From NCBI GenBank assembly GCA_945897955.1, contig CAMDGQ010000022.1:1-55514 (forward strand): a DNA stretch of 55,514 nucleotides, read 5' to 3'. A program made the position numbers and the translations under genes. Each line of letters begins with the position of its first letter. Position 1 is the stretch's first letter. Shown piece after piece: positions 519-37,351 of the stretch. This DNA comes from Tepidiphilus sp. J10 (GTDB taxonomy: Bacteria > Pseudomonadota > Gammaproteobacteria > Burkholderiales > Thiobacillaceae). The notes beneath the pieces are model-generated. The model saw only the letters and a list, made by a program, of their open reading frames with translations, searched no databases and was not told where the DNA came from.

Positions 519-929
519 TCAGTCGATGTCTTCATTGAGATCTGAATTGCATTCAGAGTGTTCATGTTCAATGAGAATGCCGAAAGTGTCATTATTGGCC
601 AGCTCTACAAGACAAGGAGGAAGCACTTCTTTGCCTTCAATTTCTCTCCAGTGCTCATCAAAATAATGCTCGGCTACTTGCCTAGATTTTTCTGCGCTAA
701 TATTGAAAAATTCGTAGTCTAGCCTGAATTCATCCAGCACTCTATGTATAAACTTTTCGGCTTTAGCTGGTTCATAGACTTCTAGTTCCCATATAACCAC
801 AAAGTTACAGTGCCATTTTTCACTTAGCTCGTCACTTCGTATGTCTGGACTGCGTTCTGTATACCCAATCTTCACGTATTTTCCGTAGCGCCTATGATCG
901 TTTATCATGCAATAAATATAACCAGACAT
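519..929 (-). CDS. GIY-YIG-like (T5orf172 / MUG113) small protein
   Basis: This 136-residue protein begins GYIYCMIN, continues YVKIGYTERSPDIRSDELS and ends its domain with AEKFIHRVLDEFRLDYEFF. That is the arrangement of the T5orf172/MUG113 branch of the GIY-YIG nuclease superfamily: short hydrophobic strand, V-K-I-G-x-T, then a helix with an E/H pair. It probably acts on DNA, but the substrate is unknown. The tail after residue 110 is acidic and poorly conserved in type. The gene is AT-richer than the chromosome to its right and starts 28 bases after a candidate attC core, so it may be the last cassette of a small integron-like array. Confidence 0.7.
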   Translation of the reverse strand: MSGYIYCMINDHRRYGKYVKIGYTERSPDIRSDELSEKWHCNFVVIWELEVYEPAKAEKFIHRVLDEFRLDYEFFNISAEKSRQVAEHYFDEHWREIEGKEVLPPCLVELANNDTFGILIEHEHSECNSDLNEDID

Positions 930-956
930 AGGCTAATCTCTATAGGCCACACGTGG

Positions 957-1014
957 AGCCAACTGGCTTAGCGCGGCATTGTCGCGTAGCGTTCGGTTGA
1001 GAGCCGGGTTGGGC
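957..1014 (-). mobile_element. Candidate degenerate attC site
   Basis: Read on the minus strand the segment starts GCCCAAC, a perfect R'' core, and ends GTTGGCT, a one-step departure from the R' consensus GTTRRRY. GGCT near the start pairs with AGCC near the end, and a GC-rich partly self-complementary centre lies between. It sits just after the stop of the 1059-1403 gene and just before the start of the 519-929 gene, as an attC should. The imperfect R' core keeps confidence low. Confidence 0.4.
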
Positions 1015-1058
1015 ATAGCAGCAAAAGAATGAGAATATTGTTAATAAGGAACGTTAAT

Positions 1059-1403
1059 CTATCGTTGGTTATGAAAGTCGGGGCCTAGATGTTCGCTTAG
1101 CGAATCCTCCAGTTGCTTGACTACTTCTGGTTTCACCCAGCCGTTATCCAGCGCCATATTTGCGACCTTAATCCACCATTGCGCACTTTGCGCAACTCTC
1201 GGGTTAGATGAATCCAAGTTCCGGCTGTTATATGCTAAATAAGCAATGGCCAGTTCATGTTCATTCAATGATGGATAGCACTCGGAAACCTTAATCAGTT
1301 CCTCAGCGTTGTTTCGTTCTAATGCAATCCGATAGTTTTGAAGAAGAGCACCTCTCGTCTTTCTGAATTTGCTGGCTGTCTTGATCACATCAAAAAAACC
1401 CAT
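1059..1403 (-). CDS. Hypothetical small protein
   Basis: The protein has 114 residues if started at the ATG at 1403, which is preceded by AAGGAG seven bases upstream. The ATG at 1409 is too close to that site, and the one at 1436 lacks one. The protein is helical and soluble-looking, beginning MGFFDVIKTASKFRK and containing two tetratricopeptide-like stretches (NNAEELIKVSE; HELAIAYLAYNSRN). I do not recognise a family. It lies between two attC-like sites, so the simplest reading is an integron cassette gene of unknown function. Confidence 0.6.
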   Translation of the reverse strand: MGFFDVIKTASKFRKTRGALLQNYRIALERNNAEELIKVSECYPSLNEHELAIAYLAYNSRNLDSSNPRVAQSAQWWIKVANMALDNGWVKPEVVKQLEDSLSEHLGPDFHNQR

Positions 1404-1590
1404 GGCCATGCTCCTTGGTATAGGCGCTGCATTCACTGGTTAATAGTGGGCAGACCCAATGCCGTTAAGGTAAGGAATCTCTGAACAACGTAGCTAACCC
1501 TTTTAACCGAACTCTCGTTCACGTGGCTGCGACGAACTGTAGATGTGTACCATCGATCCAATTCAATATCCATAAACTGCCCCTTGAGTC

Positions 1591-1662
1591 GCCCAACGTT
1601 TAGCTTGAGGGGCGCGGAGCCGGCTTGCCGGCGGAGCGTCCCTCTCGAAGCGTTTGTTGGGC
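1591..1662 (-). mobile_element. Integron attC recombination site
   Basis: On the minus strand this 72-base segment begins with the R'' core GCCCAAC and ends with the R' core GTTGGGC, both matching the attC consensus (RYYYAAC / GTTRRRY). Inside, GCTTCGAGAGGG near one end pairs with CCCCTCAAGC near the other, leaving the small mismatches expected of L boxes with extrahelical bases. A GC-rich hairpin centre (GCCGGC...GCCGGC) lies in the middle. It starts 26 bases after the stop codon of the 1688-2071 gene. Together these make it a convincing cassette-type attC. No integron integrase is visible nearby. Confidence 0.82.
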
Positions 1663-1687
1663 GTTACACATATACGGTAACAAGGCT

Positions 1688-2071
1688 TTAGATGTTGTTC
1701 CATGCCAGCCAATGCGCCATGAACAAATTAACAGTGAGAAGGCCTGGGGCAATCAGATTTACGAATAGCAGATTGAGCGCAATAATATTTTGACACAGAG
1801 AAATAATTACGCCACCGCCAATAATCCCAGCTATATAGACGCCCACTACAGACAAAAATGAGACGTCACCAAATACAGCGATGGCGAGCACGGAGAATTG
1901 TGATGCGATACCCACAAAAACAATGGTTAGTTTGTAGATGCCTCCGAATATGCCCATCTTGTACAAGCCGGGTGGCGCATAGATGGGATCTTTGAACCAT
2001 GATGATATGCCCAACGATACTAGAGCAGATAAAGGAGGGGTTAAGATTGCGGCAATATAAATTGAGTTCAT
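1688..2071 (-). CDS. Small integral membrane protein
   Basis: This 127-residue protein has three or four hydrophobic segments: about residues 4-22, 46-68, 71-95 and 97-120, including GVYIAGIIGGGVIISL. It has no recognisable domain. Its ATG overlaps the stop of the upstream gene in an ATGA, so the two are probably translationally coupled and travel on one cassette ended by the attC at 1591-1662. A two-gene cassette of a soluble and a membrane protein can be a toxin/immunity or defence pair, but nothing in the sequence proves this. Confidence 0.6.
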   Translation of the reverse strand: MNSIYIAAILTPPLSALVSLGISSWFKDPIYAPPGLYKMGIFGGIYKLTIVFVGIASQFSVLAIAVFGDVSFLSVVGVYIAGIIGGGVIISLCQNIIALNLLFVNLIAPGLLTVNLFMAHWLAWNNI

Positions 2072-2581
2072 GGCTTTACTAGCGAAAGTTTAAATATTCG
2101 GCAACCGTATCGGGTTTTTTTAAACTCGGCGTACAAAGGCGGGCCTTGTTCTTTAAATATATCAGCAGGCAACTTAATGTCTTCAATATGTGACTTTCTT
2201 CCAAACACACATAGCAAAGCAAATGCCTGTGGCCTTGCTTTAAGAAACGCTTGAAGTTTTTCTTGGTCGCCTTTGATATTGATTTTGGCTGCCTTTGCCC
2301 ACTTGACTTCCATAGCGATCTCGATGTCGTGACCTAAGGCACGAAAATCAATTCGCTTTCGATCTCCTTGGGGGGGGCATGATTCCAGGGCATTCATATT
2401 CACACGATACAGAGTAGCCGCGCGCTGTAAGAATACGGAGTATTGGTTCATAAAGAACGTACTCACTGAAAGACTGGTTCATTTCACATGCTGCAAGATA
2501 GCTTACATAGCCAGTAAGACCTCGCTTTATGCGAAATAGCACCTCTTTAGGTTCAGAATTTCTAATCGTAGAGTGCGGCAT
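2068..2581 (-). pseudogene. Frameshifted hypothetical protein (one gene in two frames)
   Basis: Two overlapping minus-strand frames join into one sensible protein. The first (from the ATG at 2581) reads MPHSTIRNSEPKEVLFRIKR... to CEYECPGI. The second continues QGDRKRIDFRALGHDIEIAMEVKWAK... to the stop at 2068. The switch falls on a run of eight G (2370-2377; C8 in the gene strand): seven would restore one frame of about 170 residues. Its D-F-R-x14-E-V-K pattern (IDFRALGHDIEIAMEVKW) resembles the core of PD-(D/E)XK nuclease-like folds, which is only suggestive. The break may be a sequencing error, a phase-variable tract or true decay. Confidence 0.6.
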
Positions 2582-2598
2582 GGGGGTTCTTTGATGAC

Positions 2599-2605
2599 GC
2601 CCAAC
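2599..2605 (-). mobile_element. Lone attC/attI-type core GTTGGGC before the first cassette gene
   Basis: On the minus strand GTTGGGC is followed 18 bases later by the start of the 2068-2581 gene, the position of an R' core. No matching R'' core is seen on its other side, only a small hairpin (AGAATC...GATTCT), so a full attC is not supported. It could be an attI-type site or a decayed attC. Confidence 0.35.
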
Positions 2606-2611
2606 AGTTGA

Positions 2612-3000
2612 TTGAACAGAATCTTGTATATCCGTGCTATACGGATTCTTGATATCACCAGCCAGTCACCTGCGCTTCTGCTGCTTGCTGGCGTTCCTTG
2701 TTATCGATATTTCGCTTCTACCGTATCAGGGAGAGGCTGTTGCGTGAAGCCTTGCGAGAGGTACTTCTGCAGAAATTTCCGGGGCGGCATGAAAAGTCAC
2801 ATTTTTTCAATGCCTTACAAGCTGTGAGGCGCGCTGGTAGGTGTCGTTCGCAGATGCTGGCATCCATGCATTTGGCAGGCATGAATGGGGCGATCCGGCT
2901 TGTGACGATGTGTGGAATGTCCTTGGAAAGGTGGGGCGGTTGCATAGTTATCCGTGCATAGTTATCCGGGTCAGACCACCGAATCCGTCCCGTCCATCTT
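2612..3000. other. Gene-free stretch between cassette cluster and toxin-antitoxin pair
   Basis: Frames of up to 116 codons are open on both strands but none has a ribosome site, domain or plausible composition. No integrase signature was found on the plus strand, where an integron integrase would be expected. The only structure is a perfect tandem duplication of TGCATAGTTATCCG at 2941-2954 and 2955-2968. Confidence 0.5.
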
Positions 3001-3336
3001 TCACAATCCCAGATGCAATCGCAGCGCCGCCTCTACAGCCTGCATCCGGTCCAACTCCAAATGTCCCACGGCTACGCCCTGGATGCGTTCCTTCGCGATG
3101 GTGCGAATTTGCTGCGCCTGGACCTTGGAATCCTTGGGCAGGCCCGACTCACCGGCGGCTAACGCCACCTCAAAGGGATAGACCTTGCTGACGTTGGAGG
3201 TGAGAGGTAGAACGGTAACAGTGCTGGCAGAGCGATTGTTGGCGTTGTTGCTGACGATGAGCACGGGGCGGCGTTTGTTGATCTCGGAGCCGACAGTAGG
3301 ACTCAGGTCGGCGAAAAAGAGGTCACCACGTTTCAT
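3001..3336 (-). CDS. mazF: MazF/PemK-type mRNA interferase toxin
   Basis: This 111-residue protein starts at the ATG at 3336 (MKRGDLFFADLSPTVGSE). It carries the PemK/MazF features in order: R-G-D-x-x-x-A-D-L-S-P-x-x-G-S-E at 3-18, R-R-P-V-L-I-V-S-N at about 22-30, and the T-V-x-V-L-P-L-T-S strand. The family consists of ribosome-independent endoribonucleases that cut mRNA at short motifs when released from the antitoxin. The open frame extends upstream, but that part overlaps the antitoxin gene out of frame and is rejected. The gene overlaps the antitoxin by 14 bases, so the pair is one operon. Confidence 0.88.
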   Translation of the reverse strand: MKRGDLFFADLSPTVGSEINKRRPVLIVSNNANNRSASTVTVLPLTSNVSKVYPFEVALAAGESGLPKDSKVQAQQIRTIAKERIQGVAVGHLELDRMQAVEAALRLHLGL

Positions 3337-3547
3337 CAGCCAGCCCCTCGCTATTGGTGATGTTCCAGGCTGCATCGACCTCACCGCTGGCTTCGCGGTA
3401 GGCGTTGTCCAGGCTTTGCTCGCGCAGCAGGCGGATCGCGTACTCCACGACCTGGGAACGGCTGCGTATGGCGTGCTCAGCGCGGTAGGCTTCAATGAAG
3501 GCGACCGCCTCCGGAGGTAGGGATATGGAAAGCTTTTCGGCAAGCAT
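3323..3547 (-). CDS. Ribbon-helix-helix antitoxin partner of MazF
   Basis: This 74-residue protein starts at the ATG at 3547, with AGAGGA six bases upstream. Residues 4-45 (EKLSISLPPEAVAFIEAY, then RSRSQVVEYAIRLLRE) fit a CopG/Arc-type ribbon-helix-helix DNA-binding domain. The acidic C-terminal tail (about 50-74) would bind the toxin. It is first in the operon, before mazF, as usual for autoregulated antitoxins. The partner is a RHH protein rather than an AbrB-type MazE, as in the mycobacterial and Bacillus MazEF branches. Confidence 0.85.
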   Translation of the reverse strand: MLAEKLSISLPPEAVAFIEAYRAEHAIRSRSQVVEYAIRLLREQSLDNAYREASGEVDAAWNITNSEGLADETW

Positions 3548-3567
3548 GAGGTTTCCTCTTTTAGTTG

Positions 3568-3587
3568 CTACCAATAATCCTACCAAT
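3568..3587. promoter_or_regulatory. Candidate antitoxin operator (direct repeats)
   Basis: CTACCAAT occurs twice, at 3568-3575 and 3580-3587, exactly 12 bases apart, about 20 bases upstream of the antitoxin start. Adjacent RHH dimers commonly bind sites spaced by about one helical turn, so this is a likely autoregulatory operator. Inferred from position only. Confidence 0.45.
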
Positions 3588-3660
3588 GTTGGGAATGGTC
3601 GGCAAACTGACTTGGTCACTCCGTAGCAATTGGAACTGGGCAGGGCGCCGAACTGTCCTG

Positions 3661-3769
3661 GCAGCGCGTAGGCGGAAAAGCAGTTTCTTCGCGCTTTCCG
3701 CCGGATGCTTGGCATTCGGCGGATAACGCCGGCAAAAAGGCCGCCGGCTCATCGACCCTACGCGGGCTG
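3661..3769. repeat. ~110 bp inverted-repeat element, copy A
   Basis: Runs from GCAGCGCGTAGG to CCCTACGCGGGCTG. The termini are complementary (GCGTAGG.. / ..CCCTACGC) and an internal hairpin is formed by TCCGCCGGATGC and GCATTCGGCGGA. About 90% identical to copy B at 4380-4489, from which it lacks one G. It has the size and fold of a MITE- or REP-type intergenic repeat. Confidence 0.85.
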
Positions 3770-3785
3770 CGATGACACGTGAACT

Positions 3786-4223
3786 TCAGCCACCACCCAA
3801 CTTCCGCCGCCACACCGGTTCGATTTCATGCTCCGCACACCATTCAGCGGCTTGGCGCATTTCGAAGTCGTTCTCGAAGCGAAACCAGCTTTCGCGCGCT
3901 TCCGGATAGTCGAGCAGGGCGTCCTTGAAGTGGCGAAACGGCTTGCGGCCATCCAGGGCATGTTGCAACACATCGGCAAGCCGCCCTTCCGGCAGGGTGT
4001 CGACGAAATCCTGCATGGCTTCGTAGGCGAGGTGGGATTCGGTCGGCTCGATGTAGAGGTAGCGCGGATCGTCGCCGAAGTTCTCCGGCAGTTCATCCAC
4101 ATCGGGCGAGTCGAGCAGGACGGCCCCGGTTTCGCTGTCCAGGTACCAACGGATTTCGAGGCTGTCCGAATGGCTGCCGAGTGCCAGCATCAGGTCGTCA
4201 GGGTCAATTTCGAGTCGGGTCAT
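3786..4223 (-). CDS. UPF0158 family protein
   Basis: This 145-residue acidic protein starts at the ATG at 4223. Family-typical blocks are visible: RWYLDSETGAVLLDS (about 25-39), the R-Y-L-Y-I-E-P stretch, EAMQDFVDTLPEGRL (about 68-82), then GRKPFRHFKDALLDYPEARESWFRFEND (about 92-118), which is the most diagnostic part. The biochemical role of the UPF0158 family is unknown. The gene is alone, flanked by direct copies of the same ~110 bp inverted-repeat element. Confidence 0.85.
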   Translation of the reverse strand: MTRLEIDPDDLMLALGSHSDSLEIRWYLDSETGAVLLDSPDVDELPENFGDDPRYLYIEPTESHLAYEAMQDFVDTLPEGRLADVLQHALDGRKPFRHFKDALLDYPEARESWFRFENDFEMRQAAEWCAEHEIEPVWRRKLGGG

Positions 4224-4379
4224 CAGGGCCTCGCTATAAGCAGGTCGCGCAGGGCGTCAGCCAGACGCTGCACGGTGACGGGTTCGGGAGCAGGAATCTT
4301 AAGATAGGCGCGGCCGCTTTGCGGGTCGGTTTCCACCAGGGGAGCAGGCCGCTTGCGCCGGAGAGGCCACCCAATAGTT

Positions 4380-4489
4380 GCAGCGCGTAGGGCGGAAAAG
4401 CGGCTTCATCGCGCATTCCGCCGGATGTTTGGCATTCGGCGGATAACGCCGGCAAAAAGGCCGCCGGTTCATCCGCCCTACGCAGGCTG
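4380..4489. repeat. ~110 bp inverted-repeat element, copy B
   Basis: Second copy of the element at 3661-3769, in the same orientation 720 bases away. Termini GCGTAGGGCGGA and TCCGCCCTACGC are perfect inverse complements, and the internal hairpin is conserved. The two copies bracket the UPF0158 gene. Confidence 0.85.
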
Positions 4490-4491
4490 AT

Positions 4492-4549
4492 GTAGGTGCG
4501 AATTTATTCGCACGCAAACGGTTGATTATGCGAATAAATTCGCACCTAC
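4492..4549. repeat. REP-like palindrome with perfect 20-bp arms
   Basis: GTAGGTGCGAATTTATTCGC (4492-4511) is followed after 18 bases by its exact inverse complement (4530-4549). The word resembles the GTAGG(A/T)GCGAAT-type REP repeats known in Pseudomonas and other proteobacteria. It starts two bases after copy B ends, so two repeat families are stacked here. A transcript would fold into a long hairpin without a U tract. Confidence 0.85.
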
Positions 4550-4590
4550 CGTCCGGTCAACGCGGTTTTTGGTTGATTCCGAGCGCCCGG

Positions 4591-4641
4591 TTGGGCAAGT
4601 TGAAGATCAGCTTTGGCGTGTGTCCCGGCGTCGGCAAGACA
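4591..4641 (+). pseudogene. Remnant of kdpD (N-terminal P-loop segment)
   Basis: Seventeen codons read LGKLKISFGVCPGVGKT. This matches the start of the KdpD sensor-kinase domain (G-K-L-K-x-x-F-G-x-x-x-G-V-G-K-T) of the potassium-responsive KdpDE system. Nothing before or after it in frame continues the protein, and the right end stops at the end of the ygiF-like gene. It therefore looks like a fossil fragment left by deletion. It is short, so chance similarity cannot be fully excluded. Confidence 0.5.
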
Positions 4642-4642
4642 A

Positions 4643-6202
4643 CTAGCGCCAGAACTGGCGCGATTGCGCCAGTCGTCGCCAGATTTCGGCTGAAATGTGG
4701 GCGTGGCGCGCGATATCGACTTGCAAAGCGCCTTCGATGCGGCCCAGATCGAAACTCAGCGCGATGGTTTTTTTCGGTATGGCATGAAGCAGACGGGCGC
4801 CGACATGGGCGTCATTTGCGCGACCGAGGACGTTCTGCAAGTCAGCCAGGGCGGCGATGAAACGCACGCCACGCTTGCCGTACAGGGGAGCGAAGGCGTC
4901 CGCCGCGTAGCGCAATTTCTTGGTGGCAATGCGGGCCAGGTGGCGTTCCGCCGGGGTGAGCCTTGCGAATCGGCGACAGCGTTTGCGCAGCGTCAGCCAG
5001 CGTTTTTCGAGGATGGCGGAGGCCCAGGCATGGGCGTTCCCCGGCCCGGATTCGCGGATCGGCTCCGGCGACGCCAGCAGACTTCGGCCAAGGTCGAGTA
5101 CCAGGCGGGTGAATGCACTGTCGCGCAGCAACGCCTGGGCTTGCTGACGACTGTCGACAGCCGCTGCCCGGATCAGTGCAAGCAATGCATCTTCGCTGGA
5201 TGACGGCTGAAACGCCTGCTCTTGCGCGGGGTTTTCGCCCAGCGCCGCCAATGTTTTGGGCAGTGTTTCGTGCAGAAAGACATCCCAGTCGCGCGCCGGA
5301 TTGAGGCCGCGCATGAGGTCACGCAAGGCCTGCGCGGTGTTCGCGCCGATTCCGCCGACGCCCTCGCCCAGCCCCTTCGCCAGCGCCACTCCGGTCCGCA
5401 GCCGGCGCAGCGCGATACGAAACTGGTGCAGATATTCGATGTTCTCGGCGTGCTCCAGAAAGCCCGGCACATTGGCGACCAGTTGCGCCAGCGCCGCTTG
5501 CATCATCGCGTTCCAGGCTGCATCGGCACTCTGTCCGGGTTGTATCGCCGGGCGCTCCGCTTTGACCGGCGCCGGAGTGAACGCACCGCTAAGGGCATAG
5601 CCGCGCTCCGCCTTGCTGCGCGGCTCGACGCCGAGCGCGACCTGCTCCAGCAATTGCGTGGCCAGGTCGAACAGAAATTCGGGCGCGCCGGCTTTCAGTT
5701 CAATCTCGATTTCGGAGATGGCCTGTCTCGCCTCGCCGGCCCGGATTTCGCTGGCCTGGATATCGCCAACCCGAATTTCGCCAATATCCAGCGCCAGTTC
5801 GGCCTGATCATCGCCGCGCACGATCTGCCAGGTAGTACGCTGGAATTCGGTAATGAAAACCGGCGCGATGCGCTGCAGGTCGATACCGCGCAGCAGTTCC
5901 AGGGCCGCCGAGGGCAACACCGCAAAGTCGGGGCTGGCGCCGCCGGCGACGGCCATTTCCCATTCCGGCCGGCTCGACATCGCGCCGACCGCGCGCGCTT
6001 CCGCCTTCAGGGTCTGCACCCAGTGATAGCCGACCCGGCGCACGCGCAGCGCGATGCCGCGCCGCATCAGATCGAACTCCGGCGTATCGAAATAGATGCT
6101 GTGCAGGATTTTTTTCGTCGGTTTGATCTCGCGCAACAGCGGATGCCGCCGGATGCGCGCGGCTTGGCGCGCGGGCAGGGCCAGTTTGAGTTCGATTTCC
6201 AT
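4643..6202 (-). CDS. ygiF: CYTH-CHAD protein, predicted inorganic triphosphatase
   Basis: This 519-residue protein starts at the ATG at 6202. The N-terminal CYTH domain (about 1-205) opens with the hallmark E-x-E-x-K (MEIELKL) and has later basic and acidic strands (ALRVRRVG; SEIEIELKAG; SKAERGY). A CHAD domain follows (about 225-515), with its two H-x-x-R-x-x-x-R-R-L-R type helices: YLHQFRIALRRLRTG and HLARIATKKLRYAAD. E. coli YgiF, with the same architecture, hydrolyses inorganic triphosphate, and CHAD domains bind polyphosphate. The gene is divergent from ppk across a 111-base promoter region, which fits a joint role in polyphosphate metabolism. Confidence 0.9.
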   Translation of the reverse strand: MEIELKLALPARQAARIRRHPLLREIKPTKKILHSIYFDTPEFDLMRRGIALRVRRVGYHWVQTLKAEARAVGAMSSRPEWEMAVAGGASPDFAVLPSAALELLRGIDLQRIAPVFITEFQRTTWQIVRGDDQAELALDIGEIRVGDIQASEIRAGEARQAISEIEIELKAGAPEFLFDLATQLLEQVALGVEPRSKAERGYALSGAFTPAPVKAERPAIQPGQSADAAWNAMMQAALAQLVANVPGFLEHAENIEYLHQFRIALRRLRTGVALAKGLGEGVGGIGANTAQALRDLMRGLNPARDWDVFLHETLPKTLAALGENPAQEQAFQPSSSEDALLALIRAAAVDSRQQAQALLRDSAFTRLVLDLGRSLLASPEPIRESGPGNAHAWASAILEKRWLTLRKRCRRFARLTPAERHLARIATKKLRYAADAFAPLYGKRGVRFIAALADLQNVLGRANDAHVGARLLHAIPKKTIALSFDLGRIEGALQVDIARHAHISAEIWRRLAQSRQFWR

Positions 6203-30954: not shown

Positions 30955-31380
30955 CTACGGATTCACCCAGGGATTGAGAATCTGAACGCCGGTTGGCTCA
31001 AAGTCGGCGACATTGCGGGTCACGACGGTCAGTCCGTGGCAAAGGGCCGTAGCAGCGATCAGCGCATCCCGATCCGCGCGCGGGTCAGGGACATGCAGTC
31101 TGGCGCAACGCTGCGCGACAAGCGTATCGACCGCCAGAATACGGCCGGCGAAGGCAGGCAGAACGTGATCGTTCAGCCAGATGCGCAGCATTCCGCCTTG
31201 CGCCGGATCGCGTCGCTCGACCAGAAGCACGCCAGTTTCCAGTTCCAGAATGGTGATGGCAGACAAGAACAGGCCCAGTGGCGGGACGCTGGCGGCCCAC
31301 GCCACCACATTGCCATCTGCTTTACCGGACCTGGCCTTGCGAAGTTCGGAAACAACTTTGGTATCGAGCAAGTACATCAA
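30955..31380 (-). CDS. vapC: VapC-type PIN domain ribonuclease toxin
   Basis: This 141-residue protein shows the PIN acidic residues in order: M-Y-L-L-D-T-K-V-V-S-E-L (D6), S-A-I-T-I-L-E-L-E-T-G (second acid), D-A-L-I-A-A-T-A (third acid) and T-R-N-V-A-D-F (fourth). D-T-x-V-x-S-E-L plus R-x-x-P-A-Q places it in the FitB/VapC group. The group uses Mg-dependent cleavage of tRNA or rRNA. Its ATG overlaps the antitoxin stop (ATGA). Confidence 0.92.
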   Translation of the reverse strand: MMYLLDTKVVSELRKARSGKADGNVVAWAASVPPLGLFLSAITILELETGVLLVERRDPAQGGMLRIWLNDHVLPAFAGRILAVDTLVAQRCARLHVPDPRADRDALIAATALCHGLTVVTRNVADFEPTGVQILNPWVNP

Positions 31381-31634
31381 CTGAAGTCCGCCGGCCGTTG
31401 GAAGTTACCCTCCAGGCGCGGTGGCTCGAATTCGATGTCACCCACGCCCGGCATCGACAACAGGTCAACGATGCTGGCGTTTCCTCCGGCCAGTTTCTGG
31501 TAGTCCTCAAAGGTCAGCAGAACATGTGCGGGCCTGCCTCGGTCGGTAATGAATACCGGACCTTCCCTGGCCGCCTTTTTGGCGCCACTGGTATCCTGAT
31601 TGAAATGCCGGCTGGAGACTGTCGTGATGGTCAT
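31377..31634 (-). CDS. Phd/YefM-type antitoxin
   Basis: This 85-residue protein has the Phd/YefM pattern: SSRHFNQDTSGAKKAAREGPVFITDRGRPAHVLLTFEDYQKL, where F-x-x-x-x-x-x-A-K-x-A...P-V-x-I-T-x-R-G-x-P-x-x-V-L is diagnostic. The C-terminal acidic/proline part would wrap the toxin. It is upstream of and overlapping vapC, and preceded by an 18-base dyad that is the likely autoregulatory operator. Confidence 0.9.
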   Translation of the reverse strand: MTITTVSSRHFNQDTSGAKKAAREGPVFITDRGRPAHVLLTFEDYQKLAGGNASIVDLLSMPGVGDIEFEPPRLEGNFQRPADFS

Positions 31635-32021: not shown

Positions 32022-33593
32022 ATGACCAGCATCCAACAACGTGCCGAACTGCAGCGCCGCATTTGGCAGATCGCCAACGATGTCCGTGGCGCTGTTGACG
32101 GCTGGGATTTCAAGCAGTACGTGCTGGGCGCCCTGTTCTACCGCTTCATCAGCGAAAACTTTGCGGCCTACATCGAAGGCGGTGACGACAGCGTCCACTA
32201 CGCAGGGCTTGCCGATGTGGTCATCACGCCGGAAATCCGGGACGACGCCGTCAAGACCAAGGGCTACTTCATCTTCCCCAGCCAGTTGTTTGCCAACGTG
32301 GCTGCCAGGGCCAACACCAACGAAAGCCTGAACGCCGACCTGGCCAAGATCTTTTCTGCCATTGAAGCCTCTGCCATGGGCTACCCGTCGGAGCGTGACA
32401 TCCGAGGCCTGTTTGCCGACTTCGACACCACCAGCAACCGCCTGGGCAACACGGTCAAAGACAAAAATGCCCGCCTGGCCTCCGTGCTCAAAGGCGTGGC
32501 CGATCTGGACTTTGGCCACTTTGACGACAGCAGTTTTGAAGCCCACCAAATCGACCTGTTTGGCGATGCCTACGAATTCCTCATCTCCAACTACGCCGCC
32601 AACGCCGGCAAGTCCGGCGGCGAGTTTTTCACGCCGCAGCACGTGTCCAAGCTGATTGCCCAGCTTGCCATGCACAAACAAACCAGCGTCAACAAGATTT
32701 ACGACCCGGCCTGCGGCTCCGGTTCGCTGCTGCTGCAAGCCAAGAAGCACTTCGATGCACACATCATTGAAGACGGCTTTTTCGGTCAGGAACTCAACCA
32801 CACCACCTACAACCTGGCGCGGATGAACATGTTCCTGCACAACGTCAACTACGACAAATTCAACATCCAGCTGGGCGACACCCTCACCGAGCCCCACTTT
32901 GGCGATGACAAACCGTTTGACGCCATCGTCTCCAACCCGCCGTACTCGGTGAAATGGAAAGGCTCGGACGACCCCACCCTGATCAACGACGATCGCTTTG
33001 CCCCGGCCGGCGTGCTGGCGCCCAAGTCCAAAGCCGACTTTGCCTTTGTGCTGCACGCGCTCAGCTACCTCTCCAGCAAAGGCCGCGCCGCCATCGTCTG
33101 CTTCCCTGGCATCTTTTACCGGGGCGGGGCCGAGCAAAAGATCCGCCAATACCTGGTGGACAACAACTATGTGGAAACGGTGATTTCTCTGGCGCCCAAC
33201 CTGTTTTACGGCACCACCATTGCCGTGAACATTCTGGTGCTGTCCAAACACAAGACCGACACCACCACCCAGTTCATCGACGCCAGCGGCCTGTTCAAGA
33301 AAGAGACCAACAACAACGTGCTGCTGGACACGCACATCGACCAGATCATGGCGGTTTTCGACAGCAAGGCGAACGTGGATCACTTCGCCCAGTCCGTGCC
33401 GTTCGAAAAGGTGGCTGCCAACGACTACAACCTGTCGGTCAGCAGCTATATCGACGCCAAGGACAACCGCGAGGTGGTGGACATAACCAAGCTCAATGCC
33501 GCGCTGAAAACCACAGTTGCCAGGATCGATAAACTGCGCGCGGAGATTGATGCCATTGTCGCGGCGATCGAGGGCGAGGAGCTGGAGGCATGA
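32022..33593 (+). CDS. hsdM: Type I restriction-modification DNA methyltransferase HsdM
   Basis: A 523-residue N6-adenine methyltransferase with an N-terminal helical bundle (about 1-165). The SAM motif D-P-A-C-G-S-G lies at 228-234 and the catalytic N-P-P-Y at 305-308. A C-terminal coiled coil (about 495-520) contacts HsdS. Similarity to the type IC (EcoR124I) branch is suggested by its length and partners. Two HsdM and one HsdS modify the recognition site; with HsdR they form the restriction complex. First gene of a six-gene operon; its stop overlaps the hsdS ATG. Confidence 0.96.
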
Positions 33594-34816
33594 GCAGCGT
33601 GAACTACTTGGAAAAGCTGCTGGATGGCGCTGGGGTGGAATGGACAGTATTGGGGGATGTGCGCTTTGTTGAAGTAGCGAATGCCGCAAGAATGCCAGTG
33701 AAAGCTTCGCTACGTGTATCCGGGGAAACGCCTTACTACGGGGCAAACAATATCCAGGATTATGTGGATGGCTACACACATATTGGCGAATACGTACTGA
33801 TCGCAGAAGATGGATCAGCAAGTCTGGAAAATTACTCCGTTCAATACGCAACCGGAAAATTCTGGGCAAATAATCACGTGCATGTTGTTCGTGGCAAGCA
33901 GGGGCTAAGCACAAGGCTTCTATACCATTATTTGCGTACTGTTGATTTCATTCCGTACTTGCCTAACAAAGACAGATCAAAACTAACAAAAGGGGAGTTG
34001 GTAAAGATCCCCATCCCCATCCCCTGTCCAGAAAACCCCAAGAAATCGCTTGAAATTCAAGCTGAAATCGTCCGCATACTGGACACCTTCACCGAGCTTA
34101 CAGCCGAGCTTACAGCCGAGCTTACAGCCCGAAAAATTCAATACAAGCACTATCGCGACGAGCTGTTGCGCTTTGAAGACGGAAACGTCGAATGGAAAGC
34201 GCTGAGAGAGATTGGTGAATTTATCCGCGGAAAGCGTTTCACCAAGGCTGATTATGTCGAAGAAGGAATCCGTGTCATCCACTACGGCGAGATCTACACA
34301 CGGTACGGCGTGTTTACAACGCATGCACTTTCTCAGGTCAGAAACGATATGGCGAAATCGCTCCGCTACGCAGAATCGGGTGACGTCGTGATAACTGACG
34401 TCGGGGAGACCGTGGAAGATGTTGGCAAAGCTGTTGCATGGCTTGGTGACGAAAGGGTTGCCATTCACGATCACTGCTATGCTTTTCGGCATTCAATGAA
34501 CCCGAAATTCGTTTCCTATTGCATGCAAACAGCGTCGTTCATTGCCGAGAAAGCAAAATATGTAGCCAGAACCAAGGTCAATACATTGTTAGTCAATGGT
34601 TTTTCCAAGATCGCCATTCCTGTCCCCTACCCTGATGACCGAGAAAAGTCACTTGCGGAGCAGGCTCGCATCGTCGGCATTCTCGATAAATTCGACGCTC
34701 TGACCAACTCTATCAGCGAAGGCTTGCCTCGAGAAATTGAGCTGCGCCAGAAGCAATTCGAGCATTTCCGCAATCTCCTTTTGAACTTCCCAAAGTCGGT
34801 AGAGATGTCAGCTTGA
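33590..34816 (+). CDS. hsdS: Type I restriction-modification specificity subunit HsdS
   Basis: This 408-residue protein has two target-recognition domains (about 15-160 and 215-365), each followed by a conserved helical spacer ([14 protein letters not shown] and [13 protein letters not shown]). The central spacer contains [13 protein letters not shown], encoded by three perfect 12-base repeats. In EcoR124I and II the number of such repeats sets the length of the non-specific gap in the target. The bipartite target sequence cannot be deduced. One base separates it from prrC. Confidence 0.95.
34094..34129 (+). repeat. Three 12-bp repeats in the hsdS spacer
   Basis: GAGCTTACAGCC is repeated perfectly at 34094, 34106 and 34118, encoding E-L-T-A each time. 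It stays in frame whatever the copy number, so slippage would change specificity spacing without breaking the gene. Confidence 0.92.
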
Positions 34817-34817
34817 C

Positions 34818-35933
34818 ATGAGAAAGACGCTGACCGAAATCGCCCAGCAGTTAAAAAGCACCGGTAAGAAGGTGCAACTGATCTATGCCTTCAACGGTTC
34901 GGGCAAGACACGCCTGTCGCGGGAATTCAAGCAGCATATTTCGCCGAAAGTGGAGGGCGAAGAGGAGCCGTCGTCAGAGTTGGCTGACAAGAAGATTCTC
35001 TACTACAGCGCGTTCACAGAAGATCTGTTCTATTGGAAGAACGATCTGGAGCGGGACGCTGAACCCAAGTTGGTCATCCAACCCAACGCGTTCACCCGTT
35101 GGGTGCTTGAAGAGCAGGGTCAGGACCAGAGCATCACCGCCACTTTTCAGCACTACACTAGCGAGAAGTTGACACCACATTTCAGTGCGGATTTTTCGTC
35201 GGTCAGCTTTTCGTTTGAGCGCGGCAACAACGAGCAAGAGCCGAATATCAAGATTTCCAAAGGCGAAGAAAGCAATTTCATCTGGAGTGTTTTCAATGCC
35301 CTGCTGGAACAGGTGATTTCCGAGCTGAACATCGCAGAAAGTGCAAACCGCTCCACCGATGCGTTCAACAATCTGGAGTACGTTTTCATTGATGACCCGG
35401 TCAGCTCACTTGATGAAAACCACTTGATCGAGTTGGCGGTCAACGTGGCAGGGTTGATCAAGTCCAGTCAATCCGACCTCAAGTTCATCATCACCACGCA
35501 CAGCCCGCTGTTCTACAACGTGCTGTTCAACGAGTTCAGCAACAAAGCTTGCTACATGCTGGAGCGTCTGGATGACGGGAGTTTCACGCTGAAGGAAAAG
35601 CACGGGGACTCCAACAAAAGCTTTTCCTACCATCTGCACCTGTTGCAGACCATTGAGCAGGCCATTGCCGATCAAAAAATAGAGCGCTACCACTTCACAC
35701 TATTGCGCAATCTTTACGAGAAAACAGCCGGTTTTTTGGGCTATCCGAAGTGGTCTGAGCTTTTGCCAGATGACAAGCAGCTTTACTACAGCCGAATCAT
35801 CAACTTCACCAGCCACAGCACGCTGTCGAATGAGGCCATGGCGGTGCCGACGCCCGCAGAACAGGCGACCGTCAAGCTGCTGACGGATCACCTGAAAAGC
35901 CGCCATGCTTTCTGGCAATCGCAGGGAGCCTGA
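34818..35933 (+). CDS. prrC: PrrC-type anticodon nuclease
   Basis: A 371-residue ABC-type ATPase fused to a nuclease domain. N-terminal part: P-loop F-N-G-S-G-K-T (25-31), a signature-like I-S-K-G-E (146-150), Walker B/D-loop V-F-I-D-D-P-V-S-S-L-D-E (189-200) and H-loop T-T-H-S-P (226-230). C-terminal part: R297, E301 and H333, with spacings of 4 and 36 identical to the catalytic R320/E324/H356 of E. coli PrrC, which cuts tRNA-Lys in the anticodon loop when a phage disables the linked type Ic enzyme. The gene lies between hsdS and hsdR, as in EcoprrI. The tRNA target here is untested. RloC, its relative, is much longer, so PrrC fits better. Confidence 0.88.
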   Translation: MRKTLTEIAQQLKSTGKKVQLIYAFNGSGKTRLSREFKQHISPKVEGEEEPSSELADKKILYYSAFTEDLFYWKNDLERDAEPKLVIQPNAFTRWVLEEQGQDQSITATFQHYTSEKLTPHFSADFSSVSFSFERGNNEQEPNIKISKGEESNFIWSVFNALLEQVISELNIAESANRSTDAFNNLEYVFIDDPVSSLDENHLIELAVNVAGLIKSSQSDLKFIITTHSPLFYNVLFNEFSNKACYMLERLDDGSFTLKEKHGDSNKSFSYHLHLLQTIEQAIADQKIERYHFTLLRNLYEKTAGFLGYPKWSELLPDDKQLYYSRIINFTSHSTLSNEAMAVPTPAEQATVKLLTDHLKSRHAFWQSQGA

Positions 35934-35937
35934 CCTC

Positions 35938-36291
35938 ATGAGCGACATCACCCACCACACCGACTACCGCCAGGCGCTGGCGGCGATCAAGCAGCGCATC
36001 CAGACCTCGCAAACTCGTGCCGTGCTGGCAGTGAATGCCGAGCTGCTGGGCCTGTACTGGGATATAGGCCGCCAGCTGGACGCCTGGCAGCGCGAACGCG
36101 CCTGGGGTTCGGCGGTGGTGGGGCAAATGGCGCTGGACTTGCAGGCCAGCTACCCCGGCATGAAAGGCTTTTCTCGCACCAGCCTGTTTGCCATGCGGCA
36201 GTTCTATGCCTTCTTCAGCCCTCAGTTTGAAGTTGTCCCACAGCCCGTGGGACAAATGCCCTGGGGTCATGTGCGCACCCTGCTGGCATGA
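35938..36291 (+). CDS. Truncated DUF1016 (YhcG) protein
   Basis: This 117-residue protein carries only the DUF1016 N-terminal domain (NAELLGLYWDIGRQLDAWQR; S-R-T-S-L-F-A-M-R-Q-F-Y; ending P-W-G-H-V-R-T-L-L-A). Full YhcG proteins continue with L-D-K-like sequence into a PD-(D/E)XK nuclease domain of another 200 or so residues. Here the stop comes directly after W-G-H-V-R-T-L-L, and rhuM starts 16 bases later. It is either a remnant cut when rhuM entered the operon or a free-standing adaptor domain. Four bases separate it from prrC. Confidence 0.8.
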   Translation: MSDITHHTDYRQALAAIKQRIQTSQTRAVLAVNAELLGLYWDIGRQLDAWQRERAWGSAVVGQMALDLQASYPGMKGFSRTSLFAMRQFYAFFSPQFEVVPQPVGQMPWGHVRTLLA

Positions 36292-36307: not shown

Positions 36308-37351
36308 ATGTCCAAGCACCAGCTGACCTTGCGCGATCAAACGACTGAATTTTTGCTCTATACCGCACCCAATGGCGCCATCAAGGTCGAGGTATTGCTC
36401 AGCAATGAGAGCATCTGGCTGACCCAGAAACGCATGGCCGAGTTGTTTGGTGTGGGCATACCGGCCATTTCCAAACACCTGAAAAACATCTTTGAGAGCG
36501 GTGAACTGGTGGAAGAAGTGGTTATTTCCGTTTTGGAAACAACCACCGAGCACGGTGCGGTGGATGGGCTGACCCAAACCCAAAAAGTCAAGTACTACAA
36601 CCTGGATGCCGTGATTTCGGTCGGCTACCGGGTGAATACGGCGCAGGCCACGCAGTTTCGTATCTGGGCCACTCAGTTGATCAAGGAGTACATCATCAAG
36701 GGCTTTGCCATGGATGATGAGCGGCTCAAAAATGGCCGCTACTTTGGAAAAGACTATTTCCGTGAACTGCTGGAGCGGGTGCGCTCCATTCGCGCCAGTG
36801 AGCGAAGAATTTATCAGCAGATCACAGATATTTTTGCCGAATGCAGCATTGACTACGACCCAAAATCTGAAACCACCCGCTTGTTCTACGCCCATGTGCA
36901 GGACAAGTTTCATTTTGCGATCACTGGCCATACATCGGCAGAAATCATTGCATTGAACGCCAATGCCAGCAAACCCCTGATGGGCATGAGCACGTACAAA
37001 AATGCGCCGGACGGTCGCGTGCTGAAGTCTGATGCAGTGGTCGCCAAGAATTACCTGAGTGAAGCCGATATCAAGAAGCTTGAGCGTGCCGTGTCTGCTT
37101 TTTTTGATTACATCGAGGGCATTATTGAGCGGCGCAGCACCTTCACCATGGAGAGCTTTGCCGACAGCGTGGACAAATTTCTCTCCTTCAATGAATACCG
37201 GATTCTAGAGGGATATGGAAGCATCACTCGCCAGCAAGCAGAGCAGAAAGCCTTTGCAGAGTACGAAAAATTCAATCGGCAACAGCGCATCGAGTCGGAC
37301 TTTGACCGCGAAGTGAAAAGGTTGCTGAAGGCAAAGGGGGAGAAGGAATGA
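36308..37351 (+). CDS. rhuM: RhuM family protein
   Basis: This 347-residue protein starts at an ATG preceded by AAAAGGA. The N-terminal virulence-RhuM block is clear ([26 protein letters not shown], a helix-turn-helix-like segment). It is followed by [16 protein letters not shown] and a T-Q-F-R-I-W-A-T block. The C-terminal half is helical and ends in a charged tail. RhuM proteins are named from Salmonella SPI-3 and are common inside type I restriction operons; their biochemical activity is unknown. The stop overlaps the hsdR start (ATGA). Confidence 0.9.

What the first reader, a model, noticed from the sequence alone, without database searches (positions are those of the whole stretch)
34818..35933. 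PrrC-type anticodon nuclease inside a type IC restriction operon
The ATPase domain is followed by R297, E301 and H333. The spacing equals the catalytic R320/E324/H356 of E. coli PrrC. The gene sits between hsdS and hsdR, the arrangement of EcoprrI, whose PrrC kills the infected cell by cutting tRNA-Lys when phage blocks restriction. Finding the pair in what looks like a betaproteobacterium, with two further genes (DUF1016 piece and rhuM) added before hsdR, suggests a layered restriction / abortive system whose tRNA target and trigger may differ.
Basis: partly seen in the sequence, partly recalled or inferred. Interest (0 to 1): 0.8.

Follow-up and report, generated by a model that had tools for sequence, protein, structure and literature searches.

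The report
PrrC anticodon nuclease in restriction operon
This is an ordinary-looking member of the known PrrC family, a suicide enzyme thought to cut the lysine tRNA when a phage disables the restriction system it is wired into; the extra genes beside it look like exchangeable cargo, one of them a broken-off remnant.

Summary
The gene at 34818-35933 is a PrrC orthologue. It matches the PADLOC PrrC model at 479 bits and is 68.6% identical to a 396-aa E. coli plasmid "anticodon nuclease", in which R297/E301/H333 fall on positions 320/324/356. In 85 aligned PrrC proteins R, E and H are kept in 84, 85 and 85. The wobble-contacting Asp (D264 = D287) and its block are kept, and the host has tRNA-Lys(UUU) with the E. 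coli loop. A different tRNA target is therefore not supported. The hsdM-hsdS-prrC-hsdR order is the published type IC arrangement.

The two "added" genes sit in a cargo slot. The DUF1016 piece is the first 128 codons of a gene that is 360 aa in close relatives; its nuclease domain is gone. rhuM occurs in this slot with and without prrC. A joint R-M/PrrC/RhuM defence was proposed in 2013 (PMC3710099).

Mild extras: the host's tRNA-Lys anticodon stem is more stable than E. coli's, a feature reported to inhibit E. coli PrrC; a palindrome is conserved inside the DUF1016 piece; a Pseudomonas shows the same DUF1016/rhuM breakpoint. Verdict: new member of a known kind.

The parts
32022..33593 (+). 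hsdM, type I methyltransferase subunit (523 aa)
   Evidence: NCBIfam TIGR00497 633.8 bits (cut-off 242.75); Pfam N6_Mtase and HsdM_N
33590..34816 (+). hsdS, specificity subunit (408 aa), overlaps hsdM by 4 nt
   Evidence: Pfam Methylase_S, two stretches; PADLOC Specificity_I 413.8 bits
34818..35933 (+). prrC, anticodon nuclease (371 aa): ABC-ATPase domain plus C-terminal RNase domain (HEPN type according to PMC3710099)
   Evidence: PADLOC PrrC 479.4 bits; Pfam AAA_13 46.9 bits, cut-off 36; no NCBIfam family; triad and D287 columns conserved
35604..35636 (+). tRNA-Lys recognition block GDSNKSFSYHL, residues 263-273 (D264 = E. coli D287)
   Evidence: role of Asp287 from PMC3014915 (passages)
35706..35816 (+). 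catalytic region: R297 (35706-35708), E301 (35718-35720), H333 (35814-35816)
35905..36291 (+). truncated DUF1016/YhcG gene: N-terminal 128 codons only, nuclease domain absent; overlaps the prrC end by 29 nt
   Evidence: DUF1016_N only; full 360-aa gene with the YhcG PDDEXK domain in L006; breakpoint
36233..36255 (.). perfect palindrome TTGTCCCAC-AGCCC-GTGGGACAA inside the DUF1016 piece
36308..37351 (+). rhuM (347 aa), overlaps hsdR by 4 nt
   Evidence: Pfam Virulence_RhuM 332.7 bits; PADLOC PDC-S05 486.9 bits
37348..40446 (+). hsdR, EcoR124-type (IC) restriction/translocase subunit (1032 aa)
   Evidence: TIGR00348 676.7 bits (cut-off 284.55); Pfam EcoR124_C 241.5 bits

Best explanation
An EcoprrI-type system, probably acquired by horizontal transfer. 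HsdM/S/R modify and restrict DNA. PrrC is held silent by the type IC complex and, when restriction is compromised (for example by a phage anti-restriction factor), cuts host tRNA-Lys(UUU) in the anticodon loop just 5' of the wobble base, stopping translation and aborting the infection. The stretch between prrC and hsdR is a cargo slot. Here a DUF1016/YhcG gene once occupied it; its 3' two-thirds were replaced by rhuM, leaving a vestigial 128-codon piece. rhuM is a separate accessory gene, perhaps a further toxin or effector, that does not depend on PrrC. Shown by sequence: family, intact triad, conserved tRNA-recognition block, operon order, truncation, variable slot content, presence of tRNA-Lys(UUU). 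Inferred from the E. coli prototype: silencing by Hsd, triggering, cleavage. Inferred from comparisons: transfer and replacement. Speculative: what RhuM does.
For: PADLOC PrrC 479.4 bits over residues 3-369, next family 46.9. tblastn relatives covering 99% of the query, annotated 'anticodon nuclease', at 68.6% identity in E. coli plasmids, with hsdM-hsdS-prrC-hsdR order. Triad in 84/85/85 of 85. G29, K30, T31, D192, D193, D199 and H228 in 85 of 85; D264 in 84 of 85. One Cys and no CxxC, so no RloC zinc hook. prrC and hsdR (each against L006) and rhuM (against L078) at pairwise dN/dS 0.116, 0.092 and 0.064. Own genome has tRNA-Lys(UUU) with loop CUUUUAA, as in E. coli lysT. Full-length DUF1016 in the same slot in L006, L007, L010, L013, L014. 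The DNA is closest to L006 from about 34.1 kb to the DUF1016/rhuM junction, to L078 through rhuM, and to L013/L006 over most of hsdR. In 5 of 8 same-genus genomes looked at, the flanking slt and NDUFA9-type genes are adjacent with no hsd genes between.
Against: No activity was measured. NCBIfam has no family for the protein, and the six-frame AAA_13 search of the genome scored 33.8 bits, under the cut-off of 36. The AlphaFold model is only moderate (mean pLDDT 76.4) and under 50 at 265-268 and 332-340, that is at part of the recognition block and at H333, so it does not independently place the active site. I recognise only ABC-type ATPases among the 50 Foldseek hits listed. The host tRNA-Lys(UUU) anticodon stem-loop folds at -4.2 kcal/mol against -0.4 for E. 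coli, and a stable stem is reported to inhibit E. coli PrrC (PMC3014915, passages), so cleavage may be less efficient. The DUF1016 piece shows no sign of decay (mean dN/dS 0.068, lowest mean dN of 8 sequences), which leaves room for a function.
Confidence: 0.86

Rival explanations
1. A PrrC orthologue with a shifted tRNA specificity (another tRNA, or both tRNA-Lys isoacceptors UUU and CUU), adapted to its host.
For: Host has tandem tRNA-Lys(CUU) and tRNA-Lys(UUU). Both anticodon stem-loops fold more stably than that of E. coli lysT. Residue 262, beside the recognition block, is His where the E. coli plasmid protein L003 has Tyr.
Against: GDSNKSFSYHL is conserved including D264 = D287. Position 262 varies widely in the family (H 22, Y 19, K 15 of 85). 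The UUU loop is identical to E. coli.
Confidence: 0.1
2. A three-layer defence in which PrrC, the DUF1016 piece and RhuM act as one unit with HsdR.
For: All are co-directional with overlapping or nearly adjacent reading frames. PrrC + R-M + RhuM neighbourhoods were proposed as a multilevel programme (PMC3710099, passages). The DUF1016 piece is not decayed.
Against: DUF1016 has lost its nuclease domain. In 37 HsdR-picked loci a RhuM match lies in the hsdS-hsdR slot in 5 of 17 with PrrC and 3 of 20 without, Fisher p = 0.43; small numbers, so a weak association is not excluded. Of 82 PrrC loci with a measurable gap, 22 have 500 nt or more between prrC and hsdR, filled by several unrelated families.
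Confidence: 0.12
3. A RloC-like or non-nuclease AAA/ABC protein.
For: Weak PADLOC matches to other ABC-ATPase defence families; the fold match is to Rad50/SMC/PtuA-type ATPases.
Against: The PrrC match is about ten times stronger in bits; no zinc hook; triad at exact PrrC positions; type IC linkage.
Confidence: 0.02

Closest known systems
E. coli PrrC / EcoprrI (prrABCD)
   Same: Gene order, triad numbering, Walker motifs and Asp287 block, compared through the E. coli plasmid protein L003
   Different: 371 rather than 396 aa: against L003 it lacks a 16-residue stretch near the N-terminus and two short ones, a length shared with L006, L008 and L010; extra cargo between prrC and hsdR
PrrC170 of Klebsiella quasipneumoniae (PMC11555353, passages)
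   Same: PrrC with a type I R-M system; shown there to arrest growth and target tRNA-Lys
   Different: That paper gives it 35% identity to EcoPrrC; this protein is 68.6% identical to the E. coli plasmid protein L003. I did not compare the two directly
RloC
   Same: ABC-ATPase plus an RNase domain with an R-E-H triad (PMC2610378, passages)
   Different: RloC has a zinc-hook/coiled-coil insert and is rarely linked to type I R-M; both features differ here
PrrC + R-M + RhuM neighbourhoods (PMC3710099, 2013)
   Same: Same combination of genes, with the multilevel-defence idea stated (passages)
   Different: The DUF1016 remnant and cargo exchange are not in the passages I saw

Membership tests
PrrC | Nearly full-length match to a PrrC family model | tested here: met
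   PADLOC PrrC 479.4 bits, residues 3-369, model 19-350 of 372
PrrC | R320/E324/H356 nuclease triad in the right columns | tested here: met
   R297/E301/H333 align to 320/324/356 of L003 and L018
PrrC | ABC-ATPase motifs (Walker A, Walker B/D-loop, H-motif) | tested here: met
   G29, K30, T31, D192, D193, D199, H228 invariant in 85 of 85
PrrC | tRNA-Lys recognition residue Asp287 and its block | tested here: met
   D264 = D287, D in 84 of 85
PrrC | Linked to a type IC hsd operon, between hsdS and hsdR | tested here: met
PrrC | HEPN fold of the RNase domain | tested here: inconclusive
   Region 269-363 predicted helical, but pLDDT is under 50 at 332-340 and I recognise no HEPN chain among the 50 Foldseek hits listed
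PrrC | Cleavage of tRNA-Lys, silencing by Hsd, activation by an anti-restriction factor | not testable with these tools
   needs the bench
RloC | Zinc-hook (CxxC) coiled-coil insert | tested here: not met
   single Cys, no CxxC; 371 aa
Type IC R-M | EcoR124-like HsdR and HsdM | tested here: met
   EcoR124_C 241.5 bits; TIGR00348, TIGR00497 above cut-off
DUF1016/YhcG nuclease | C-terminal PDDEXK domain (YhcG_C) | tested here: not met
   absent in the window's 128-aa piece; present in L006

The most novel reading that the evidence does not exclude
PrrC orthologues have adapted to their hosts' tRNA-Lys: this one would cut a tRNA-Lys whose anticodon stem is much more stable than E. coli's (and perhaps the CUU isoacceptor too). 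Beside it, the DUF1016 piece has been kept as a small DNA-binding protein acting through the conserved palindrome to control rhuM or hsdR expression.
Probability: 0.08. Interest if true: 0.5.

Novelty: new member of a known kind. Interest (0 to 1): 0.25.

Why it matters
It adds a well-conserved betaproteobacterial PrrC to a family of which few members have been tested at the bench. It also indicates that the extra genes in such operons can be exchangeable cargo that leaves scars, so presence in the operon alone should not be read as a functional layer.

Tried and rejected
Considered and rejected: RloC or another AAA family (no zinc hook, PrrC model far stronger). Motif spacing as proof: 201 of 20000 shuffles carry it. 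AlphaFold plus Foldseek as proof of the nuclease fold: inconclusive. The RhuM model is too weak to use (11 sequences, mean pLDDT 64.5; best hits DdrC at E about 3e-3 with query TM-score about 0.2). PDB by sequence: only two chains, E 0.025 and 0.047, matched over residues 184-235. Phage records: no match at E up to 1e-5. For the palindrome, the control (pattern read backwards) also occurs in 1 of 399 genomes, so its mere presence once in a genome is no more than chance gives; only its conservation at one place in the DUF1016 genes speaks for it. Paper searches for RhuM with type I restriction, rloA and DUF1016 or RhuM listed no title or abstract that I judged to describe this slot; of those papers I opened only PMC3710099. 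PMC9296519 (passages) proposes VapC and HicA beside R-M systems as PrrC analogues; it does not bear on this locus.

Rows dropped and biases: of the HsdR matches with 53% identity or less, and G204, G760, G957, G820 and G897, whose matches lack the HsdR N-terminus, were left out of the 37-locus census. In that census L177 starts about 900 bp upstream of hsdR, L158 starts inside prrC, and L157, L158 and L166 hold the same DNA as L041, L015 and L034 of the PrrC set. The 84 PrrC loci are 4 chosen plasmid hits (of 113 records) and the best 80 of 207 relatives, so they lean to close relatives. Alignment A1 used 71 of the 85 PrrC sequences. Of 34 tRNA matches 30 had loci and were scanned. Of 14 other same-genus genomes with a match to the flanking slt gene I took 8. 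The slot proteins sent to Pfam were 30 chosen ones, not all slot ORFs. One flank query (named cca) was cut out of frame and is not used. The palindrome codon test is post hoc.

Full report
Observation. The ORF at 34818-35933 is intact and lies between hsdS and the later genes of a complete hsd operon. PADLOC calls it PrrC at 479.4 bits over residues 3-369; the next family scores 46.9. Pfam gives AAA_13 at 46.9 bits, cut-off 36; the six-frame search of the genome gave 33.8, under it; NCBIfam has no family for it. The nearest plasmid relatives include E. [quoted passage not shown]

Catalytic and recognition residues. In an alignment of 85 PrrC proteins (window, 4 plasmid loci, 80 genome loci) R297, E301 and H333 fall on R320, E324 and H356 of the 396-aa E. 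coli plasmid protein L003. They are kept in 84, 85 and 85 of 85; L056 has Cys at the Arg. The peptide patterns used to fetch the genome loci did not include the three residues. Walker and H-motif residues are invariant. D264 aligns with D287 and is kept in 84 of 85 within GDSNKSFSYHL; Asp287 is reported to contact the modified wobble base (PMC3014915, passages). The R320/E324/H356 assignment is in PMC2610378 (passages), and the HEPN assignment of PrrC and RloC in PMC3710099 (passages). The motif spacing alone would be weak: 201 of 20000 shuffles of residues 256-371 contain it. I did not have the EcoprrI prototype sequence; L003 stands in for it.

Target. The host genome has tRNA-Lys(UUU) beside tRNA-Lys(CUU) (30 of 34 tRNA matches had loci to scan). 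The UUU tRNA has the loop CUUUUAA, as in E. coli lysT. Its anticodon stem-loop folds at -4.2 kcal/mol against -0.4 for E. coli. PMC3014915 says a stable stem is inhibitory to PrrC activity. This is a sequence-level reason to expect a kinetic or specificity difference; it does not point to another tRNA.

The cargo slot. Between prrC and hsdR lie a 128-codon DUF1016 piece and rhuM. In L006, L007, L010, L013 and L014 a 360-aa ORF whose first part is 88-94% identical to the piece fills the slot, and in L006 Pfam finds both DUF1016_N and the YhcG PDDEXK nuclease domain. The window keeps only the N-terminal part. By best blastn match per 200-base bin, the window is closest to L006 from about 34.1 kb to the break, to L078 through rhuM, and to L013/L006 over most of hsdR, with L076 closer between 37.9 and 38.5 kb; in hsdM several loci tie and the first half of hsdS is closest to L009. 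At the break, window and L078 (Pseudomonas dryadis) leave the DUF1016 sequence at the same codon, followed by ATGACA (by eye); in L078 and L149 the upstream remnant is much more decayed. L019 shows the reverse: a scrap of rhuM before an intact DUF1016. Of 82 PrrC loci with a measurable prrC-hsdR gap, 22 have 500 nt or more; of 79 with a measurable hsdM-hsdS gap, 12 do. Among 30 chosen slot proteins (3 without any family) Pfam finds RelA_SpoT, Bro-N, Fic, DUF1016/YhcG, a RhuM-Fic protein and AAA_14/DUF4143 in the prrC-hsdR slot, and RelA_SpoT, Fic, KilA-N, RhuM, DUF1016 and half an HsdS in the hsdM-hsdS slot.

Does rhuM go with prrC? I picked type IC loci by HsdR alone and fetched 37. PrrC lies upstream of hsdR in 17 of 37, L152 being broken. 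A RhuM match lies in the hsdS-hsdR slot in 8: five with PrrC (L149, L151, L153, L154, L155) and three without (L150, L167, L168), Fisher p = 0.43. Counting only near full-length RhuM, three have PrrC (L149, L153, L155) and two do not (L167, L168). Three further loci without PrrC have RhuM upstream of hsdS (L173, L178, L179). So rhuM does not need prrC; a weak association is not excluded with these numbers.

Acquisition. In 5 of 8 same-genus genomes examined (L232, L234, L235, L236, L238) the two flanking genes are adjacent; in L231 they are about 4.6 kb apart, and in L233 and L237 the second flank was not found in the stretch fetched. No HsdM, PrrC, RhuM or HsdR match was found in the 8 stretches. 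This fits insertion of the operon at this place.

Structure. The PrrC model (71 sequences) has mean pLDDT 76.4, with R297 and E301 on one helix (290-307) and H333 in a short low-confidence helix. The 46 Foldseek hits with E up to 0.001 are mostly Rad50/SMC/PtuA-type ATPases. This supports the ATPase half and leaves the nuclease fold untested.

What is known. EcoprrI, its silencing of PrrC and activation by T4 Stp are described in PMC3014915 and PMC3874165 (passages). PMC11555353 (passages) shows another PrrC-R-M system acting on tRNA-Lys. PMC3710099 (passages) states that some PrrC-like genes sit with R-M and RhuM-like genes and proposes a multilevel defence. In the searches, which cover only the open-licence library and which I judged from the listings, I found no paper on the DUF1016 remnant or the slot exchange.

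Verdict. A sound observation of a conserved PrrC; ordinary in kind; target shift not supported; "layered" genes better read as exchangeable cargo.

Noticed in passing
window 36233-36255: Perfect palindrome TTGTCCCAC-N5-GTGGGACAA inside the DUF1016 piece. The same perfect arms occur in the slot DUF1016 sequences of L006, L007, L010, L013, L014, L019, L024 and L081 and in the decayed remnant of L149. Of 399 genomes of the order only the window's own has it, but the backwards control pattern also hits 1 of 399. In 9 sequences 5 of 6 aa-invariant palindrome codons are unchanged against 15 of 72 elsewhere, a post hoc test. L078 has lost it.
   Followed up: partly
L003 13570-14076: On an E. coli plasmid with phage-like genes (terminase, late promoter activator, death-on-curing toxin pair annotated) the prr operon is followed, on the other strand, by a gene annotated 3'-phosphatase, possibly a tRNA-end-healing function beside its own anticodon nuclease.
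   Followed up: no
L152: A broken PrrC in a genome of the same order: only residues 197-318 and 323-369 are matched, about 1 kb apart, and no hsdM or hsdS match lies in the 10 kb before hsdR.
   Followed up: no
L056 9001-10113: The only one of 85 PrrC proteins without the catalytic Arg (Cys instead); its operon has a RhuM gene in the hsdM-hsdS slot.
   Followed up: no
L186 and L241 (other contigs of the window's genome): The genome has a second DUF1016_N match in a 447-aa open frame (139.6 bits) and a second, partial RhuM match covering positions 1-83 of 252.
   Followed up: no
window 30955-31634 (- strand): A likely toxin-antitoxin pair (Phd-like then VapC/PIN-like, judged by eye from the translations, not by a family search) just upstream of hsdM, also between the two flanking genes; none of the 8 same-genus stretches searched had a match to either.
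   Followed up: partly
L231 about 635-4830: The same chromosomal gap holds xanthine-dehydrogenase-like genes (judged by eye from the ORFs) in a same-genus genome, so the site may be a general insertion spot.
   Followed up: no
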